Below, in pieces: positions 2,065 to 11,106 of a DNA stretch of 64,000 nucleotides. The notes under the pieces are model-generated. The model was given only the letters and a program-made list of their open reading frames with translations, ran no database searches and was not told the DNA's origin. Source of the stretch: Emcibacter sp. (lineage in GTDB: Bacteria > Pseudomonadota > Alphaproteobacteria > Sphingomonadales > Emcibacteraceae); the NCBI GenBank assembly GCA_021774785.1, contig JAJFIQ010000026.1, forward strand, positions 1 through 64,000. Direction: 5' to 3'. Each line of letters begins with the position of its first letter. The stretch's first letter is position 1. The translations under genes were made by a program, and so were the position numbers.

Positions 2065-3093
2065 ATGGCCGATTTTATTACCCTTGGCGAAATTATGTTA
2101 CGCCTGAAAACCACCGCCCATGAACGTTTTTTCCAAAACCCTTCCATGGAAGCCACATTTGGCGGGGGCGAAGCCAATGTGGCCGTGGCCTTGGCCAATT
2201 ATGGCCTTGATGCCGCCTTCGTCACCGCCCTGCCCGACAATGACATTGGTGAGGCCTGTATCCGCGAAATACGCAGCTTCGGGGTTGATACCAGCATGAT
2301 CCGCCGTTCAGGTTCGCGGGTTGGCATTTATTTCCTCGAGACTGGCTCCAACCAACGTCCCAGCAAAGTGATTTATGACCGCGAGGCATCCTCCATCGCA
2401 CAATGCGGTCCGGGGGATTTTGACTGGAATGAAATTTATAAAGGTGCCAAATGGCTGCATATCACCGGCATCACACCGGCACTAAGCCAGTGCGCGGCTG
2501 ATATGTCTCTGGAAGCCATGAAGGCGGCCAAAGAGCATGGTGTGACTGTGTCCTGTGATTTTAATTTCCGGGGAAAATTATGGAAGTACGGCAAAACAGC
2601 ACCTGAAGTCATGACCGAACTGGTTAAATATATCGATGTGGGTATTGCCAATGAAGAAGACTGTCAGAAATCGCTGGGAATTTCAGCAGATGTGGATGTG
2701 GAAAGCGGCGAACTGGATACGGCCAAATATGAAGCCCTGTCAGAACGTATGATGGAAATATTTCCAAATCTTTCTGTGATGGCAATTACCCTCCGGGAAA
2801 GCCATAGTGCGGACCGTAACGGCTGGTCGGCCTGTCTGCGTGACGAAAACGGGTTTCATTTATCAAGACATTATGAACTTACCGACATTGTGGATCGTGT
2901 CGGAGGCGGGGACAGTTTTGCCTCTGGCCTGATTGCAGGATTAAATCTCTATTCAGACCGGTCCGACGCCCTGAATTTTGCCGTTGCCGCAAGTGCCCTT
3001 AAACACACCATTTCCGGGGACTTTAACCGTGTCAGCCGCGATGAAGTGGTAAAGCTCATGGAAGGTGATGGCTCGGGCCGCGTCCAACGCTAA
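2065..3093 (+). CDS. kdgK: 2-keto-3-deoxygluconate kinase (PfkB family)
   Basis: A 342-residue PfkB/ribokinase-family sugar kinase. The N-terminal GEIMLRLKT segment and the glycine-rich [17 protein letters not shown] are typical of KDG/fructose kinases. The C-terminal signature [17 protein letters not shown] places the catalytic base at Asp283 within the anion-hole GGGD. The neighbouring eda supports phosphorylation of KDG to KDPG, giving a KDG to pyruvate plus GAP route, as used for hexuronates or alginate. An AAGGAG ribosome site lies at about 2053-2058. Specificity for KDG rather than another sugar rests on context; the kinase family call is firm. Confidence 0.88.
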
Positions 3094-3315
3094 ACTGGAT
3101 GCGCTGTTGCACTTCATGACAACGACCAAAGACTAGAAAATGGCAGGGAATAAAGGGTTTCAGAATGTAGTGCTATGACAATAGAAGTCTAATTATGATC
3201 ATTTCTATTTAATTTTAACACATAAATATCGCAGCAACCATTAACGGTAGCAGCTTGATGTCACCTACCTAAAAAATTACATAACTCAATCTAATAAATA
3301 CTATATTTGAATTGC
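3094..3315. other. AT-rich intergenic region, probable CRISPR leader side
   Basis: This stretch between kdgK and the first CRISPR repeat contains no convincing gene. Its right half is AT-rich. Because the crRNA-sense strand of the array is plus, this side would be upstream of the array. The opposite flank leaves only 46 bases before the cas2 3' end. That makes this the more likely leader, but no leader motif is recognised. Confidence 0.4.
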
Positions 3316-3615
3316 GTCATAGCTTCCCTTTTCACACCGTTATGATATGCTTATAAAACAAAGACTTAGTCAATAAAATTTGTCATAGCTTCCCTTTTCA
3401 CACCGTTATGATATGCTATTGAGCCACTTGAAAACAACATTATTGAGGTCATAGCTTCCCTTTTCACACCGTTATGATATGCTTGCCTTTGCTATGCAGC
3501 AGAGCGTGACGAGGTCATAGCTTCCCTTTTCACACCGTTATGATATGCTGAACCATTTATTCACCCATCCCGGCGTGTCGTCATAGCTTCCCTTTTCACA
3601 CCGTTATGATATGCT
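3316..3615 (+). CRISPR. type II-C CRISPR array, five repeats, four spacers
   Basis: Five identical 36-base repeats start at 3316, 3382, 3448, 3514 and 3580 with an exact 66-base period, so all four spacers are 30 bases (3352-3381, 3418-3447, 3484-3513, 3550-3579). The repeat begins GTCATAGCTTCCC and ends TTATGATATGCT. The start resembles the Neisseria-type II-C repeat (GTTGTAGCTCCC) in sense orientation, so crRNAs should be made from the plus strand, convergent with the cas operon. No repeat is degenerate. The strand call is also supported by complementarity to the tracrRNA at 8088-8111. The last six bases of each repeat, TATGCT, with TG two bases before, form an extended -10-like element. 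Confidence 0.97.
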
Positions 3616-3661
3616 GGATTTTGTGTAAGAGTTTGATTTTATTGATATAATGGCGGATGGC

Positions 3662-4003
3662 TCATAGTAAAAGGAGCTGTTCGCTGTTGTATTTTGGGTC
3701 GTCTTCATCGAATCTTTCGGCATTTGAGAGCAAAATATTCATATTTTTATACTGTCGGTCAGTGATTTGCAGTGCCCGGATACTGCCTTTTGGCGGCAGG
3801 ATCATTTCCAGACGTTTGACATGTTTCTGCACACGTTCCGTCCCATTGCATATCCTACCATATATGGAATATTGAAGCATCATATATCCGTCTTTTAACA
3901 GAAACTTTCGAAAGCGGGTGGCATGGCGGCGTTCTTTTTTTGTGGTTGTTGGCAGGTCAAACATTACAAATATCCACATAAACTGGTTCCCTTGCGCACT
4001 CAT
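3662..4003 (-). CDS. cas2: CRISPR-associated endoribonuclease/adaptation protein Cas2
   Basis: A 113-residue Cas2 that dimerises between two Cas1 dimers in the spacer-acquisition complex. The ferredoxin-like fold opens with MWIFVMFDLPTTTKKERR, in which the conserved Asp after the first beta strand (FDLP) is present. LQYSIYGRICNG follows, and ITDRQYKNMNIL lies near the C terminus. Length and sequence are typical of the type II-C Cas2 group. Its start overlaps the cas1 stop by four bases (ATGA), indicating translational coupling. It is the last gene of the cas9-cas1-cas2 operon and ends 46 bases from the array. Confidence 0.95.
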   Translation of the reverse strand: MSAQGNQFMWIFVMFDLPTTTKKERRHATRFRKFLLKDGYMMLQYSIYGRICNGTERVQKHVKRLEMILPPKGSIRALQITDRQYKNMNILLSNAERFDEDDPKYNSEQLLLL

Positions 4004-4893
4004 ATCACAAAATCAGGCAGTTTCAGAAGGGTGGGGTCCTTTTCCCGAATGGCATTGACCAGACTATAGGCTGTCACATCCGTCGCATTGGTCATATTCT
4101 GCACTTCACCATTTATCAGAACCTGTAGCGTGGCCAGCCGGGCAAGCTCTTGCCTGACGTCACGGGATAAATCATCATCCTTACCATCAAAATTTTTCAG
4201 GATTTTAATGACCTCCTGATCAACCATAGGCCGGAAGGGTTCCAGAATATCGTCTGCAAGGTTAAAGGCATTCAGGTTATTATCATGATGAAGCCCAAAG
4301 CACGGCAGCAAGCCATAGCTCACCAATGACCGGGCCACCACGGCCCGCAGAACCATATATCCGTAATTAAGTGCATTATTGGCAAAATCTGTTGCTCCCC
4401 TGACAAAGCCGTTACCCATCAGGCTCGACCAATATTTCCGAGCCGCCTGGGCTTCCTTGTTTTTGGGATCGCCGGAGTCCACCCGTCTGGCCATGTGACG
4501 CAGGGTCGAGACATTCTTCCGGCCTGAAATTTCCAGTGATCGCGCCTGATTAATAATCTTGGCTTTGACGATCTTCTGCCAACAGCGTTTTTTGAACGGA
4601 CTGCTCCACTGATTCTGCAGAAAAGCGACCTCGCTGACACGGGAATGGGGCAGGAACGGCAACAACAGGCCATTAGGCATATGTTTGCTATTACAGGTGA
4701 TCAGAACCACATTCTGTTCCTGCAATTCGGCAAGCAGAGATGAGGTAATTGTAGCTTGCGGTGTTTCCAGAATGATGATGGTGATATCTTCGATTGGCAC
4801 TGAAACAATGCCGTCTTCTCGTTTACAGTTCAGTTGCTCATCTTTTTTGGACAGATGACATTTTTGCTGAATAAGTAAGGTCCGCCAAGACAT
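4000..4893 (-). CDS. cas1: type II CRISPR-associated integrase Cas1
   Basis: A 297-residue Cas1 integrase that inserts protospacers at the leader-proximal repeat. It starts MSWRTLLIQQKCHLS, typical of type II Cas1. Expected metal-binding residues are visible as Glu147 (KNKEAQAARKYW), His203 in GLHHDNNLNAFNLADD and Glu218 in DDILEPFRPMVD, closely matching the E/H/E triad spacing known for type II Cas1. It lies 65 bases downstream of cas9 and overlaps cas2 by four bases. The length is normal. No csn2 or cas4 gene is present, which with the Cas9 size makes the locus II-C. Confidence 0.96.
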   Translation of the reverse strand: MSWRTLLIQQKCHLSKKDEQLNCKREDGIVSVPIEDITIIILETPQATITSSLLAELQEQNVVLITCNSKHMPNGLLLPFLPHSRVSEVAFLQNQWSSPFKKRCWQKIVKAKIINQARSLEISGRKNVSTLRHMARRVDSGDPKNKEAQAARKYWSSLMGNGFVRGATDFANNALNYGYMVLRAVVARSLVSYGLLPCFGLHHDNNLNAFNLADDILEPFRPMVDQEVIKILKNFDGKDDDLSRDVRQELARLATLQVLINGEVQNMTNATDVTAYSLVNAIREKDPTLLKLPDFVI

Positions 4894-4958
4894 TATAAAC
4901 TCCCCAACCAGTATAAGTTGAGGTGTTTATACAATACAATCAGTTAAACTTTGATTAA

Positions 4959-7900
4959 CTATGAAATTTTAGAGCGGTTACCAAATAAATCTACATGATA
5001 CTTTTTAAAAAATTTCATGCTTTGCACCCCCGGTTCACGATCTTTAACGCTACGATCATGGAAACGAATTTTAACCGTTCCAACACCCCTATGTGTAGAA
5101 ACATAATAGCCTTCCACAATCACACCTTTTTTGTTCTCAAGCTTCACATAATCATTCTTATAAAGATCAAATTTATGGGTATAATTTTCATCCACAATTG
5201 GCCAGTCTTCTTCTTTTTGATAGGCCTTAATCACCCGATTAGGCTCAATCCCCGCCATCACGTCTTTAATATATACAGGGCAGAGATAAAATTTTCCGGC
5301 TTTTTCATAGACCTTGACATAGGCCATATCGCCGTTGCTGGCGATGCCCTCTCGTACGGGAAAACCACTGCGATCATTGGTGATCAGCCGCACGGAACGG
5401 ATTACCGGCCCCTGACCATTCTTACACGGCATATGAACAGGGGTAACGAATGCCTTGTCCGCCTTGCCGTCAAATTCATCCAGACGGTCTTTCAGGACAT
5501 TATACAGAGCAGCATTGCGGCCCGTTGCCACGCCACCTACCAGTTTTACATCCACCAGATTTTCAAGATCTTTGACTTTCAGGGATCCAACCGACACCCG
5601 CTTCACCGCATATGACTGTCCCTCTTCATCATGGCGCAGGCTTTTGATGGTATCTTCATGGATAGCGCCGGTGAGCTTTCGATTTACTTGTCTTGTAACA
5701 AAAATATTATCAATCATCCCCAGCGCATCGTCACGGAATGTATCCCACGGTTTTGGGGGATAAAAATTCGGCTGATCCGGATGGTTTGACCGATGGCGTT
5801 TGCTCCAGTTGGTCATGGCTTGCACATGGCTCTGGGTTGCGGCGGCAATGATGATGGCGTCCAGACCATGATGGCGATCATTTTCTTCCCGGTCTTTCAA
5901 GCCCAAACCCCAGGCATGGCGTAGTTTGCTGGTTAAGGCCCCGTTACGGGTTTTTACGAATATTTTACCTTCCTCATGGGGGTTTTCCAAATAGCGTTCC
6001 ATATGCTCTTTCAGCAGACGTGAAATATAGCGATTGTCATTCAGGTGGCGGGATTTCCATTCTTCCTGTTTATCCTCATCAAAATTTTCCATGAGCAACC
6101 GTTTTGATTTATCGGGATTGCGGAGCCGTTTGGCGAAATCCTCCAGACCATTCATTGAACGGCCTTTGGCGGCAAAATACTCAACGGGGGTCTGATTTCC
6201 CTTTTCCTGATTTTCATCGGCAAAGCAGATGACCTTGTTAAACCAGCTGTTATCATAAGACCGGCTATAGGGCAGGATATGATCTACTTGGGTTGCTATG
6301 CTATCAGACAACTCTAGGGGATCAATATATGAACCGCTATAGGCGCAATAACCATTTTGTTCTTTCCATAGCTTATATTTAGCAAAATCTTCACCACTTA
6401 ATGACCGGCCAAATATTTCTTCTGCATGTTTTTTAAGTTCTTCGTTATTGGCACGGTTTTTCTGGATTTCACGTTCTTTGTCTTTTCGGTCCTTGAAGTT
6501 TTTGCCCAGTTCCCGTGACATTTCAATATGGAAAAAATCGGGCATACCATGCTTTCTGATCAGGGCATTGATCATCTTGCGGGTCTGGCTTAGGGCGCGT
6601 AGAACCAGAGGGTTCCGCACATCTACGCCGAATTCTGGTAGAAAGGGGGGCAGTTTCTGATAGGCACCTTCACGGCGTTCGCTATGATCATAGCCCGCCA
6701 TTTCGCAAGCTACGGAATAGACCTCGCCCTGCTCAAGGAACGGCAGAATATTGCGGATTGCTTTCAGAGAAAGACCCGCCGTACCAGACAGGTTCAAAGG
6801 CATGATAGCCTCCAACTGTTCTGTGGTCAGGGGCAAATCAGCGGTAAGTTTAAAGATTTCTTTCCTGTCATCATTGAAAGCCATGATCTCAACCAGTTCA
6901 TCCAGAATATCAGCCCGACCCATAAATGTCATAAGCTCTTGTTCCGACATTGATTTCTTAAGCTCGGTCTTGATTTTATGATAACCTTCAAGCTTGATCA
7001 AACCAACCTTTTCGGCGGTCTTGACAATTTCTGCCCAGCTTTGGTCCTCGCCCCTGATTTTACGATAAGAAGCCAAGTTAAAGGTGCTGTTGTCATTTAT
7101 TTCAAGAAGATCACGGGCTTTCTTGAAGGTCACCTGTTTTTGTTTATGGGCCGCCTCAATCAGGGTTCTTTTTTCGTCCAGTGACAGGGAACGCCCTTTG
7201 CCGCCAGTTACCACTGAAAGACTGCTCAGCCGTTCCCAGCAGACGCGCAATTCATTGCTATAGGTCATTTTGGCAGCACGGCGTTCATCTTCTTCAAATT
7301 CGCAAGGGCCGACCAGATCATGGCTGGATTTCAAGGGGCGCTGGGTGAAAGCTTGTTCAAGGAATTCATCGCACAGGTCATCCGTGGCAAGGGCATTGCC
7401 AAGGTCTTTTTGATGGGCAAAAATAATCCTCACTTCCTCAGCCAGAAGGTCACGGGTGACGGTGTGATTATAGGCACTGGGGTTATTGCGTCTTTTATCC
7501 TGTATCGAAAGATATGCCCCTATGGTTTCTGCTTTTGCGTCCTTTTGTGCTTCTTGTAAGGCGGCGGCGTCTTTTAACATCACGCCCGCCTCGCTGCCCT
7601 GAACGCTGTCAGATTTACGGGTTGATTTAAAGCCGCGTCTTTTGTTGATATGGCTCAAAATCTGCCCTAATTCATGGGGGATAAGTTTTCGGGTAAGGGC
7701 TTCCGCCCGCAATTGCCATACGTCGGGTGCGGTGATGGTACCAGTCTTCCGGCCTTTTTTAGGCAGTCTGAGGTCGTCTGCCGTAAAGCCGTGAGACAGG
7801 AGCAGGTGCCGGATGCGTATTTTTCGCCGCCGTTTGCGATCTGCCATGCGCCGGGCTAGCCTTTTGACGCGCCGGGGCATGGCAAGGGACGCTCCGTCTT

Positions 7901-8021
7901 TGCCATTTTCTGCCGCCTCAAATATTCTGACCCCCGCATCAATTATTTCTTCATCTGATAAATCAAGCACCGCCCAGCCGACGCTGGCGATACCCGTATC
8001 AATACCAATTATCTGAACCAT
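4959..8021 (-). CDS. cas9: type II-C CRISPR-associated endonuclease Cas9
   Basis: A 1020-residue RNA-guided DNA endonuclease of the compact II-C class. Domain order and key residues are readable. RuvC-I is IGIDTGIASVGWAVLD with Asp8. An arginine-rich bridge helix covers about 50-72. A helical recognition lobe covers about 75-470. RuvC-II is FHIEMSRELGKN with Glu500. The HNH domain has QVDHILPYSRSYDNSWFNK with His581 and Asn604. RuvC-III is RHHGLDAIIIAAATQ with His718 and Asp721. The wedge/PAM-interacting region covers about 800-1020. All nuclease residues are intact, so an active enzyme is expected. Spacing closely parallels Neisseria Cas9. A GGGGAT site precedes the ATG. It leads the cas9-cas1-cas2 operon; the tracrRNA is divergent from it. 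The PAM cannot be read from the window. Confidence 0.98.
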   Translation of the reverse strand: MVQIIGIDTGIASVGWAVLDLSDEEIIDAGVRIFEAAENGKDGASLAMPRRVKRLARRMADRKRRRKIRIRHLLLSHGFTADDLRLPKKGRKTGTITAPDVWQLRAEALTRKLIPHELGQILSHINKRRGFKSTRKSDSVQGSEAGVMLKDAAALQEAQKDAKAETIGAYLSIQDKRRNNPSAYNHTVTRDLLAEEVRIIFAHQKDLGNALATDDLCDEFLEQAFTQRPLKSSHDLVGPCEFEEDERRAAKMTYSNELRVCWERLSSLSVVTGGKGRSLSLDEKRTLIEAAHKQKQVTFKKARDLLEINDNSTFNLASYRKIRGEDQSWAEIVKTAEKVGLIKLEGYHKIKTELKKSMSEQELMTFMGRADILDELVEIMAFNDDRKEIFKLTADLPLTTEQLEAIMPLNLSGTAGLSLKAIRNILPFLEQGEVYSVACEMAGYDHSERREGAYQKLPPFLPEFGVDVRNPLVLRALSQTRKMINALIRKHGMPDFFHIEMSRELGKNFKDRKDKEREIQKNRANNEELKKHAEEIFGRSLSGEDFAKYKLWKEQNGYCAYSGSYIDPLELSDSIATQVDHILPYSRSYDNSWFNKVICFADENQEKGNQTPVEYFAAKGRSMNGLEDFAKRLRNPDKSKRLLMENFDEDKQEEWKSRHLNDNRYISRLLKEHMERYLENPHEEGKIFVKTRNGALTSKLRHAWGLGLKDREENDRHHGLDAIIIAAATQSHVQAMTNWSKRHRSNHPDQPNFYPPKPWDTFRDDALGMIDNIFVTRQVNRKLTGAIHEDTIKSLRHDEEGQSYAVKRVSVGSLKVKDLENLVDVKLVGGVATGRNAALYNVLKDRLDEFDGKADKAFVTPVHMPCKNGQGPVIRSVRLITNDRSGFPVREGIASNGDMAYVKVYEKAGKFYLCPVYIKDVMAGIEPNRVIKAYQKEEDWPIVDENYTHKFDLYKNDYVKLENKKGVIVEGYYVSTHRGVGTVKIRFHDRSVKDREPGVQSMKFFKKYHVDLFGNRSKIS

Positions 8022-8077
8022 AACGAAATCCCCACTTTTTTTGTTGATTACTTTTTATAAAACTGTTTTACTGTGAT

Positions 8078-8176
8078 TACAACAAATCGGTGTGAAAAGC
8101 GTTGTTGTGATAAGGAATTTATTTCCGTAAAGCTCTGTCCCCGTCAACTATATAGTAGGCGGGGATAACTTTTTTA
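8078..8176 (+). ncRNA. tracrRNA of the type II-C system
   Basis: Found by complementarity to the CRISPR repeat. Bases 8088-8111 pair with repeat bases 1-24: a perfect 12-base-pair upper duplex (CGGTGTGAAAAG against CTTTTCACACCG), a small internal bulge, then an 8-pair lower duplex with three G-U pairs. A short hairpin follows (GGAA/TTCC, 8114-8126), then the AGCTCTGTCCCC segment, then a terminal hairpin (CCCCG 8139-8143 with CGGGG 8160-8164, inner ACT/AGT 8147-8156), then a T run at 8170-8175 acting as terminator. This order matches Neisseria-type tracrRNA, including its GCTCTGCCCC block. The 5' end is a guess within 8070-8088. It is divergent from cas9. Confidence 0.88.
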
Positions 8177-8373
8177 CGGGCCATTATTTGATACATTGAA
8201 CCAAAACCACCCAGTTCTCTTTTTCATCCTGTCGGGCGCGCCAATATTCTCGGATCCGAACCGGAGAGAGATATCTTTTTATATAATTTCCATCCCCGCT
8301 TAAAACAGCTAATTTGACGTTTTCCAATTCAGCCTGTACCTTTTAATCAATATTATAAAGTTTAGGGAATTAT
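8177..8373. promoter_or_regulatory. promoter region of the MalT-like regulator gene
   Basis: Between the tracrRNA terminator and the regulator gene there is no open frame of note. A consensus -10 hexamer TATAAT sits at 8282-8287, with no good -35 at the usual distance. That would place transcription start near 8294 and a leader of about 80 bases. A TTTAGGGA ribosome site lies at about 8361-8368 before the GTG start. Confidence 0.4.
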
Positions 8374-11106
8374 GTGAGTTTATCCAAAGATGTCATAATT
8401 ACAAAACTTGCACCGCCCGTATTAAGGCAGGCGTTAATCGCACGCACTGACCTTATGGCAACAATTATGGACAATGACGTTAAAAGATTGACGCTCATTT
8501 CCGCCGGTGCCGGCTTTGGCAAAACAACCTTCATTACATCGCTTTTCCACGGATTTGGGGACCAAAATGCATGCCGGGCCTGGATATCATTGGATGCTGA
8601 TGAAAGAAATGAATTTCGTTTTCTAAAGTATCTAGTCACGGCCTTAAGCCATGATGGAACATTATGCACCGACGAAGCAGCAATTATTCTGGAAAGTCAG
8701 ACCCTTAACCGAACCAGCAGGGTAATGACAGCCCTGATCAATGAAATGACGCATATAGACAGGCAGATCATACTGTTTCTGGATGATTATCACCTTGTGG
8801 ATGGGCGCGAGGCCGGGTTTATAGTGGATTATCTCTTATCCCATGCCCCAGCTAATTTCAGATTGGTGATTTCAAGCAGGACCAGACCCTCCCTGCCCAT
8901 ATCTTCTCTCAAAGCACAGAATGAGCTTCAGGAAATAACAGATTATCATCTGCGGTTTTCTGTAACGGAAACCCGCGAGTTTTTACGTATCGCCCATCAG
9001 CTAAATCTGACCGACAAGCTTATTACCGGGTTGCAAACCAAGACAGAAGGTTGGATTGCAGGACTACAACTTGTATCATTGATTTTAAAAGATAAGCGCC
9101 ATAATAAGGACCTGATGCAAGTAATATCCGGTAATTTCCGCGACATAATGGATTATCTTGCGGCCGATGTTTTTGCCCTTCAAAGTGAGGAGAATCAAAG
9201 TTTTCTACTAAAGTCATCCGTGTTGGACAGGATGAATGCAGAAGTCTGCAACTGGATGCTGGACATTCATAACAGCCGGGAAATATTCGAGAATCTCGAA
9301 GATAAAAATCTGTTCATTACACCTTTGAATGAAGAAAATGGATGGTATCGTTATCATCACTTGTTTCAGGATTTCCTGCGGGTTCGGCTGGAAAGGCAAG
9401 ACCCCGGCCTGAAAAAGGAACTGACCATCAAAGCGGCACAATGGTTCCTGCAATATGGCTCTGTAACGGAGGCCGTAAATTATGCTCTTGAAGCACAGGA
9501 TTATGAACTTTCTGCATCTTTAATTGAAGAACATGCCAGCACTTTCACAGCGCGCGGGCAAATGCCGTTACTACAAGATTGGCTCACGCGAATTCCGGCC
9601 CATATCGCCAGCGAAAGATACCGGATACCCATGTATCTCTGCTGGGCTCTATTTCACATGCGGCGGTCTGTAGAAGCCGCCAGTGCCGCATACCGGGCAG
9701 AAGAAATAATAGAAAGACAAGCGCAGACCAATTTATTATCGGGCGAGAATCTTAAAAATATCCGCGCCGAACTAAAAGTCTTGAAAATAGGTGTCGCCGT
9801 AGCATCCGATGACGTGGAACGCGCTAAAATATTATGTTTAAAATTTCTGGAATTAGACTTTGCCGAGAATTCTTTCATCACAGGCGTCATGTATAATATG
9901 TTGGGCTATGCCTGCTATGCCCTGAGTGAATTCAGTCAGGCAAAGGGCGCCCTTCTCAAAGCCCGCCATTGTCACGGTCAGGCGCGAGCCATATATGGAA
10001 AGATTTATTCAGATTGTTTTATGGGTATGAATGAAGCGGCCATGGGAAAACTTCATATGGCCCATGCTTTATTCCTGCAAGCCGAAGACTGGGCGATCAA
10101 AGACCGCTTGCCCCGTTCATCCGGGGCGGCAAATGCCCGCCTGTATCGTGGGTGCGTCCTCTATGAATGGAATAAAATAGACGAAGCAAAAGAGCTCATG
10201 GAGAAAAATATTGACCGGGTTATCGAATGTGGGCAGGCAGAAGCACCCATTCTAGGGCTATGTACCTATGCCCGAATATTACAAATAACCGGTGAGAGCG
10301 AAGAAGCGTGGAAACAGTTGGAAAGAGCCCGCAATATCTGTCGCGATGACCAGCTATACCGACTGGCCATCCTGACCGATTATGAAGCCATCCGCTTCCT
10401 TGTTAAACAGGATAAACTGGCGCAGGCCATCGCCCGTGCCGGCCTTGCTGCCATATCCATGGGTGAACAGGACGAAGATTTTCAATTACAGAAATGGGAC
10501 AGGGTTTTATGCCTGAAATTATTAATTAAGGTCCGTTTGCTATTTACGCTTGAAGAATATTACCATGCCTTGAAACTCATTGACCATATTTTTATACTCG
10601 CCACCAATGTTGGCCGTACAAAACGGGTTCTTGAATGTCTCATTCTCAAGGCTGTTACCCATTGGCAAATTGGAAAAAAAGATCAGGCTATAGTTAGTTT
10701 TGAACAGGCCTTAAATATGGCTCGCTCGGAAGAATTTACCCGCGTTTTTCTTGATGAAGGCGACATTATAGCCCCCCTCCTTCAAGCCATAATTTCGAAA
10801 CAGAAATCAACAACTGAAGATAACAGATATATTAACCGGCTAGTGGAAGGGCTGGGCAATGCCGCTACTGTTTCAGCGCGCAAAGCCATTGGCGGCAACT
10901 ATTTACTGCTGGCGGAATTAAGCCAACGCGAACTGGATGTCATGTCACTGCTTGCCGCCGGGGAAAGTAATGCGGAAATTGGCAAACAACTTAAAATCAA
11001 AGAAAATACCGTTAAATGGCACATCAAAAATATCTTTGAAAAACTTGGCGTGAATAACAGAACCTCTGCTGTTCTGGCGGCTCAGGAACTTAAACTGGTC
11101 GTGTGA
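8374..11106 (+). CDS. MalT/LAL-type ATP-dependent LuxR-family transcriptional regulator
   Basis: A 910-residue STAND-type activator. The N-terminal NTPase has Walker A SAGAGFGKTT (about 43-52) and Walker B ILFLDDYH (about 133-140). A winged-helix/arm region follows (LEDKNLFITPLN, GWYRYHHLFQDFLR), then a long helical TPR-like sensor (about 340-830), then a C-terminal LuxR helix-turn-helix (LSQRELDVMSLLAAGES, ENTVKWHIKNIFEKLGVNNR). Members of this class bind an inducer in the TPR part and oligomerise with ATP to activate catabolic promoters. Start is GTG 8374; an ATG two bases earlier runs straight into a stop. It lies directly upstream of, and co-directional with, the amidase-to-matB island, so it is the likely activator of that island (inference). 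Confidence 0.88.
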   Translation: MSLSKDVIITKLAPPVLRQALIARTDLMATIMDNDVKRLTLISAGAGFGKTTFITSLFHGFGDQNACRAWISLDADERNEFRFLKYLVTALSHDGTLCTDEAAIILESQTLNRTSRVMTALINEMTHIDRQIILFLDDYHLVDGREAGFIVDYLLSHAPANFRLVISSRTRPSLPISSLKAQNELQEITDYHLRFSVTETREFLRIAHQLNLTDKLITGLQTKTEGWIAGLQLVSLILKDKRHNKDLMQVISGNFRDIMDYLAADVFALQSEENQSFLLKSSVLDRMNAEVCNWMLDIHNSREIFENLEDKNLFITPLNEENGWYRYHHLFQDFLRVRLERQDPGLKKELTIKAAQWFLQYGSVTEAVNYALEAQDYELSASLIEEHASTFTARGQMPLLQDWLTRIPAHIASERYRIPMYLCWALFHMRRSVEAASAAYRAEEIIERQAQTNLLSGENLKNIRAELKVLKIGVAVASDDVERAKILCLKFLELDFAENSFITGVMYNMLGYACYALSEFSQAKGALLKARHCHGQARAIYGKIYSDCFMGMNEAAMGKLHMAHALFLQAEDWAIKDRLPRSSGAANARLYRGCVLYEWNKIDEAKELMEKNIDRVIECGQAEAPILGLCTYARILQITGESEEAWKQLERARNICRDDQLYRLAILTDYEAIRFLVKQDKLAQAIARAGLAAISMGEQDEDFQLQKWDRVLCLKLLIKVRLLFTLEEYYHALKLIDHIFILATNVGRTKRVLECLILKAVTHWQIGKKDQAIVSFEQALNMARSEEFTRVFLDEGDIIAPLLQAIISKQKSTTEDNRYINRLVEGLGNAATVSARKAIGGNYLLLAELSQRELDVMSLLAAGESNAEIGKQLKIKENTVKWHIKNIFEKLGVNNRTSAVLAAQELKLVV

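What the first reader, a model, noticed from the sequence alone, without database searches (positions are those of the whole stretch)
8078..8176. tracrRNA located and folded by hand, with Neisseria-like architecture
A 24-base anti-repeat pairs with the repeat (12-pair upper stem, bulge, 8-pair lower stem). It is followed by a short hairpin, a GCTCTGTCCCC block and a terminator hairpin with T run. It lies divergent from cas9, so cas9 and tracrRNA promoters share about 60 bases and may be co-regulated. The whole RNA is only about 90 bases.
Basis: seen in the sequence. Interest (0 to 1): 0.72.

Follow-up and report, generated by a model that had tools for sequence, protein, structure and literature searches.

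The report
Ordinary type II-C CRISPR tracrRNA gene

Summary
A 24-nt anti-repeat (8088-8111, + strand) pairs with nt 1-24 of the 36-nt CRISPR repeat at 21 of 24 positions: 12-bp upper stem, internal loop, 8-bp lower stem. A short hairpin, the GCTCTGTCCCC block and a terminator-like hairpin with a T run follow. The gene is divergent from cas9 in a cas9-cas1-cas2 locus with five repeats. It is the only match of a covariance model in the 3.5-Mb genome. Seven other cas9 loci (one a cas9 relic) carry a homologue in the same divergent place, with compensatory changes in the duplex and the short hairpin. The RNA resembles the Nme1Cas9 guide RNA more than the GeoCas9 one, although the Cas9 protein scores higher against GeoCas9 structures. 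The layout matches published alphaproteobacterial II-C systems (EHCas9, DfCas9). Co-regulation with cas9 is only geometry: no sigma-70 consensus match lies in the 66-bp gap. Novelty: a new member of a known kind. Extras: the free tracrRNA can fold a 5' hairpin over its own lower-stem anti-repeat, and one relative carries a solitary scaRNA-like half-repeat between cas1 and cas9.

The parts
8088..8111 (+). anti-repeat of the tracrRNA (12-bp upper stem 8088-8099, internal loop, 8-bp lower stem 8104-8111)
   Evidence: 21 of 24 positions pair with repeat nt 1-24; co-fold; covarying pairs in L032/L033
8078..8087 (+). 5' arm of the predicted tracrRNA; 8078-8085 can pair with 8102-8109 in the free RNA; the 5' end itself is inferred
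   Evidence: folds; no transcript data
8114..8126 (+). short (nexus-type) hairpin GGAA..TTCC
   Evidence: fold; two pairs with changes on both sides
8132..8142 (+). GCTCTGTCCCC block, like GCTCTGCCCC of the Nme1 guide RNA
8136..8175 (+). terminator-like hairpin TGTCCCCGTC..GGCGGGGATA and T run (8170-8175)
   Evidence: fold; kept in form in relatives. The consensus terminator scan did not list it
8022..8087 (.). 66-bp stretch between the cas9 start codon and the anti-repeat; must hold or overlap both divergent promoters
   Evidence: no sigma-70 consensus hit there
4959..8021 (-). cas9, 1020 aa
   Evidence: TIGR01865 2e-208; PDB Cas9 chain 9ar4 7.9e-173
4000..4893 (-). cas1 (type II)
   Evidence: TIGR03639 6.2e-91
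3662..4003 (-). cas2
   Evidence: TIGR01573 6.9e-24
3316..3615 (+). CRISPR array: 5 identical 36-nt repeats, 4 spacers of 30 nt

Best explanation
The stretch encodes the tracrRNA of a type II-C CRISPR-Cas9 locus. Inferred mechanism, by analogy with characterised II-C systems: the + strand is transcribed from a promoter between cas9 and 8088 and ends at the hairpin and T run near 8175. The anti-repeat pairs with repeat nt 1-24 of crRNAs read from the same strand; the duplex may be trimmed by RNase III; the short hairpin and terminator stem are held by Cas9; the dual RNA guides cleavage of phage DNA. Shown here: sequence anatomy, pairing, conservation, covariation and locus context. Inferred: transcription, processing, Cas9 binding and cleavage.
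For: Pairing and fold. Single model hit in the genome. Homologues in the same divergent position at 8 of 8 loci of the family, window included. Repeat:anti-repeat changes on both sides at repeat nt 2, 16, 17, 18 and 23 in L032 and L033, and at nt 13 in L033. In L034, L036 and L048 the tracr part has 80 of 83, 78 of 84 and 81 of 83 aligned columns identical, the 66 nt upstream 55 of 68, 56 of 68 and 55 of 67. cas9, cas1 and cas2 open and full length. Published systems of the same layout: EHCas9 and DfCas9, whose crRNAs keep 24 nt of repeat.
Against: No Rfam family matches at E up to 1. No transcript data. No sigma-70-like promoter at the tool's threshold in the intergenic stretch, and the terminator was not listed by the consensus scan. 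Two-sided changes are only moderate (4 pairs against a shuffled mean of 2.1; 37 of 500 shuffles reach it); one nexus pair is unpaired in 4 of 7 distinct rows, and L032 and L033 each break six terminator pairs, L031 two, in that alignment. At the distance of L032 and L033 the tracr part (53 of 93) is no better conserved than the upstream 66 nt (40 of 74 and 40 of 80), and near the shuffled level. No convincing protospacer was found for the window's spacers.
Confidence: 0.96

Rival explanations
1. Silent or decaying tracrRNA gene: the locus no longer works.
For: Small array of 5 repeats; no convincing protospacers for its spacers. One relative (G012, L048) keeps the tracr gene beside only a cas9 fragment, with no cas1, cas2 or repeat copy (up to 9 mismatches) in the 11 kb examined.
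Against: cas9, cas1 and cas2 are open and full length in the window; all five repeats are identical; the tracr part is better conserved than its flanks in near relatives; the RuvC and HNH motif segments align with 9ar4.
Confidence: 0.03
2. The RNA is chiefly a regulator (scaRNA or long-form tracrRNA type) rather than the crRNA partner.
For: The free RNA can fold a 5' hairpin that imitates the lower stem; an scaRNA acting on efeUOB is reported for N. meningitidis (passages of PMC13431127).
Against: Pairing with the repeat is near complete and covaries; no half-repeat outside the array lies in this genome within 3 mismatches; no upstream guide was demonstrated.
Confidence: 0.01

Closest known systems
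EHCas9 system (El Hondo metagenome, closest homologues alphaproteobacterial; PMC10281378)
   Same: II-C, cas9-cas1-cas2 order, about 100-bp tracrRNA gene upstream of cas9, array inferred to be read in the tracrRNA direction, two presumed stem-loops after the anti-repeat (passages; section 22 part 1 of 2)
   Different: Cas9 of 1070 aa with NGG-type PAM shown by experiment; sequences were not compared here
DfCas9 system of Defluviimonas sp. 20V17 (PMC7708072)
   Same: II-C, tracrRNA upstream of the cas genes, array read opposite to the cas genes, tracrRNA products of 72-83 nt, crRNAs with 24 nt of repeat (passages)
   Different: Cas9 of 1079 aa with PAM NNRNAYN; expression was shown there, not here; sequences not compared
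Nme1Cas9 guide RNA of Neisseria meningitidis
   Same: Repeat nt 1-18 identical at 13 of 18; ATAAGG after the anti-repeat and GCTCTG-CCCC before the terminator stem; alignment above all 500 shuffles
   Different: The short hairpin is smaller here; the Cas9 protein scores lower against N. meningitidis Cas9 (530 bits) than against GeoCas9
GeoCas9 of Geobacillus stearothermophilus
   Same: Best-scoring solved Cas9 group for the protein (8jtj 565.8 and 8uza 561.4 bits; the top hit 9ar4, 580 bits, looks GeoCas9-like to me from recall); repeat nt 1-18 identical at 12 of 18; ATAAGG shared
   Different: tracr alignment weaker than with Nme1 (3 or 23 of 500 shuffles as good, by length used)

Membership tests
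Type II-C CRISPR-Cas tracrRNA | anti-repeat complementary to the locus's own CRISPR repeat | tested here: met
   21 of 24 positions; best in window; single model hit in genome
Type II-C CRISPR-Cas tracrRNA | hairpin(s) after the anti-repeat and an intrinsic terminator | tested here: met
   but the consensus terminator scan missed it and the short hairpin depends on the 3' end chosen
Type II-C CRISPR-Cas tracrRNA | transcribed, co-processed with crRNA and bound by Cas9 | not testable with these tools
   needs RNA sequencing and binding assays
Type II-C CRISPR-Cas locus | cas9, cas1 and cas2 only, no csn2 or cas4 | tested here: met
   Between the sugar-kinase gene (2065-3093) and the MalT-like regulator (8374-11106) the ORFs of 80 aa or more are cas2, cas1, cas9 and frames overlapping these or the regulator. 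The rest of the genome was not searched for csn2 or cas4
Type II-C CRISPR-Cas locus | Cas9 of the II-C branch with RuvC and HNH motifs | tested here: met
   Best PDB matches include GeoCas9 and N. meningitidis Cas9, which I recall as II-C; motif segments align. No tree was built
II-C repeats with an embedded promoter | promoter active in each repeat | tested here: inconclusive
   The repeat ends in TGATATGCT, of the form TGNTANNNT that I recall for II-C repeats; activity not testable
Rfam tracrRNA families | covariance-model match | tested here: not met
   No match at gathering score in the window nor at E up to 1 in 3000-8500

The most novel reading that the evidence does not exclude
In this tracrRNA group the 5' arm (TTACAAC and its neighbours) stands where L032/L033 have the part of the anti-repeat that pairs with the 3' half of the repeat, and it folds onto the lower-stem anti-repeat (6 of 8 sequences). 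It would gate assembly: free tracrRNA stays closed until a crRNA opens it (net pairing energy -15.8 instead of -22.0 kcal/mol), or it acts as a crRNA-free imitation of a guide near the cas9 promoter.
Probability: 0.07. Interest if true: 0.4.

Novelty: new member of a known kind. Interest (0 to 1): 0.14.

Why it matters
It defines, with covariation support, the guide-RNA parts of a compact (1020-aa) II-C Cas9 for which one paper search (Emcibacter with CRISPR) showed no description. Otherwise it is ordinary and matches known alphaproteobacterial II-C systems.

Tried and rejected
Rfam gave nothing. Protospacers: three of the window's four spacers were scanned as exact 24-mers in viral contigs (0 hits). 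The whole array against phages gave 76 records at E limit 10: the 20 listed are all the AT-rich first spacer against Staphylococcus phages at E about 4; 56 were not listed, and the call counts 2 records at 99% identity or more among all 76, which I did not inspect. The array of relative L035 (36 repeats) hit 18 microvirus records, all listed, 17 with one spacer and 1 with another; exact scans for those two and one further (repeated) spacer in viral contigs gave 0. Arrays L031 and L033 gave none in phages. A PAM guess of N4CA(G) rests on three protospacer records of two spacers and is too thin to claim.

Model R1 in 289 genomes of the class, with stricter filters and 15 scored candidates a genome in the rows shown, found only the window and G385. 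Over the window and 33 fetched loci it gave 12 matches at E up to 5, of which only the window's and L054's are strong. R1 therefore describes near relatives, not II-C tracrRNAs at large.

A search for long-form tracrRNA autoregulation terms returned 0 papers. Emcibacter with CRISPR returned 2 papers, seen as a listing. I first took the best PDB matches for Nme-type Cas9; checking showed that 8jtr and 8uza are GeoCas9 and 6jdq is N. meningitidis Cas9, and the report was mended; the odds did not change, because both support II-C.

Of the 19 regions taken, one search examined 17 (L045 and L047, without an array, were left out) plus the window: 18 sequences. Eight carry this tracr family; for L010, L034, L036 and L048, where no array was found, the window's repeat was the probe. 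Six (L037, L039, L040, L042, L044, L046) carry other-looking candidates. Four (L035, L038, L041, L043) gave no convincing site; L035 lacks the cas9 5' end. My filter against array copies may have hidden sites there.

Full report
What is there. Cas9 has 1020 aa and matches TIGR01865 at 2e-208. Its best solved relatives are 9ar4 (E 7.9e-173), then 8jtj and 8uza; N. meningitidis Cas9 (6jdq) follows at 9.3e-158. The PDB listing names no organism; passages of PMC12088677 say that 8jtr (listed with 8jtj) and 8uza are GeoCas9 and 6jdq is N. meningitidis Cas9. The RuvC and HNH motif segments align with 9ar4. No csn2 or cas4 gene lies in the locus.

Pairing. Repeat nt 1-24 pair with 8088-8111 at 21 of 24 positions, as an 8-bp lower stem, an internal loop with one isolated pair, and a 12-bp upper stem (co-fold). 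In an ungapped scan of both strands of the window this is the best site apart from the complements of the array copies (21 against 19 for the next). In the whole 3.5-Mb genome covariance model R1 has one match, at 8087-8177 (105.8 bits; 150 of 527 first-look candidates scored), and no repeat or half-repeat copy lies outside the array within 3 mismatches.

Fold. 8078-8176 folds at -31.6 kcal/mol, z -4.35 against shuffles, with the GGAA/TTCC hairpin and the terminator stem. With about 10 more bases at the 3' end the predicted free structure changes and the short hairpin is lost in 5 of 8 sequences. The consensus terminator scan did not list this terminator.

Relatives. A Cas9 search of 196 genomes, the window's own included, matched in 30. 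One search examined 17 of the 19 regions taken, and the window. In 8 of these 18 the same tracr family is found, each time divergent from and next to cas9: the window, L010 (Cas9 91% identical), L034 (86% over the part held), L036 (87% over the part held), L031 (66%), L032 (48%), L033 (46%; identities) and L048, where only a cas9 fragment remains. Six others have different-looking candidates and four gave none. Between the window and L032/L033 the duplex changes on both sides at repeat nt 2, 16, 17, 18 and 23, and L033 restores a pair at nt 13 that L032 lacks. L032 and L033 are close to each other, so these are few independent events. In alignment A1 the short hairpin has two pairs with two-sided changes and one pair unpaired in 4 of 7 distinct rows. 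For the whole structure 86.7% of cells pair (at most 59.3% when slid), 4 pairs have two-sided changes against 2.1 in shuffles (37 of 500 reach it), and 3 of 500 shuffles reach the covariation score. L032 and L033 each break six terminator pairs and L031 two in this alignment, although each has a terminator stem of its own when read directly. In near relatives the tracr part is more conserved than its flanks; at the distance of L032/L033 it is not. R1 also finds the tracr gene upstream of a 37%-identical Cas9 (G385, L054) and no other at E up to 0.01 in 289 genomes of the class.

How it works. By analogy with characterised II-C systems: tracrRNA and crRNA are read from the same strand, opposite to the cas genes; they pair over 24 nt of the repeat and guide Cas9. 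DfCas9 of Defluviimonas has this layout, with 24-nt repeat-derived crRNA parts and 72-83-nt tracrRNAs shown by sequencing (passages of PMC7708072). The EHCas9 locus has a tracrRNA gene of about 100 bp upstream of cas9, and target-specific plasmid loss was shown (PMC10281378: passages; section 22 part 1 of 2). The tracr part resembles the Nme1 guide RNA beyond all 500 shuffles in two runs (sequence from a passage of PMC6594998) and the GeoCas9 guide RNA less well (sequence from a passage of PMC12514136). Transcription, processing and cleavage in the present organism are inferred.

Co-regulation. The cas9 start codon and the anti-repeat are 66 bp apart, so the promoters must share this space or overlap the transcripts. 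No sigma-70-like site at the tool's threshold lies there. By eye, TTGTAA and TATAAA on the cas9 strand with a 17-bp spacer could be a cas9 promoter whose first box lies in the tracrRNA 5' arm; this is a reading, not a result. Divergence holds at all 8 loci of this family, so it is not a special feature of the window.

Where it lives. Locus L029, a contig titled Emcibacter sp. (MAG), has the same length and match as L010 of G013, which is listed as same genus as the window's genome; the host is therefore probably Emcibacter or a close alphaproteobacterium.

Verdict. Confirmed, and ordinary: a new member of a known kind. Two side observations are listed separately: the 5' hairpin of the free RNA, and a half-repeat element in a relative.

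Noticed in passing
L035:3896-3985 (G010, between cas1 and cas9; same contig as L030): A solitary 24-nt half-repeat (the part that pairs with the tracrRNA, one letter unread) followed by a strong hairpin, preceded by a 21-nt stretch that recurs with 2 mismatches in inverted orientation at 4325-4345, about 20 nt past the cas9 end. It could be an scaRNA-like natural guide or the end of a small inserted element with inverted repeats.
   Followed up: partly
L035:1896-1925 and 2159-2188: Two spacers of a relative's array match capsid genes of microviruses: best 96.7% over 30 nt for one (17 records, 81-97%) and 100% over 25 nt for the other (1 record). In the three records fetched, CAG stands at positions 5-7 past the protospacer, if the second is taken as 30 nt with its last bases mismatched.
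   Followed up: partly
L048:5328-5713 (G012): An intact-looking tracrRNA gene next to a cas9 relic, with no cas1, cas2 or repeat copies in the 11 kb examined.
   Followed up: partly
window 8076-8111: The free tracrRNA can close an 8-10-bp hairpin between its 5' arm and the lower-stem anti-repeat; comparable hairpins in 6 of 8 sequences, a different 5' pairing in L032/L033, whose input began at a later point of the arm.
   Followed up: partly
G018:C4:252042-252065 (L075) and G015:C12:1506-1529 (L078): Single sequences 2 and 3 mismatches from the half-repeat, the only ones within 3 mismatches in those two genomes; only the flanks and ORFs were printed.
   Followed up: no
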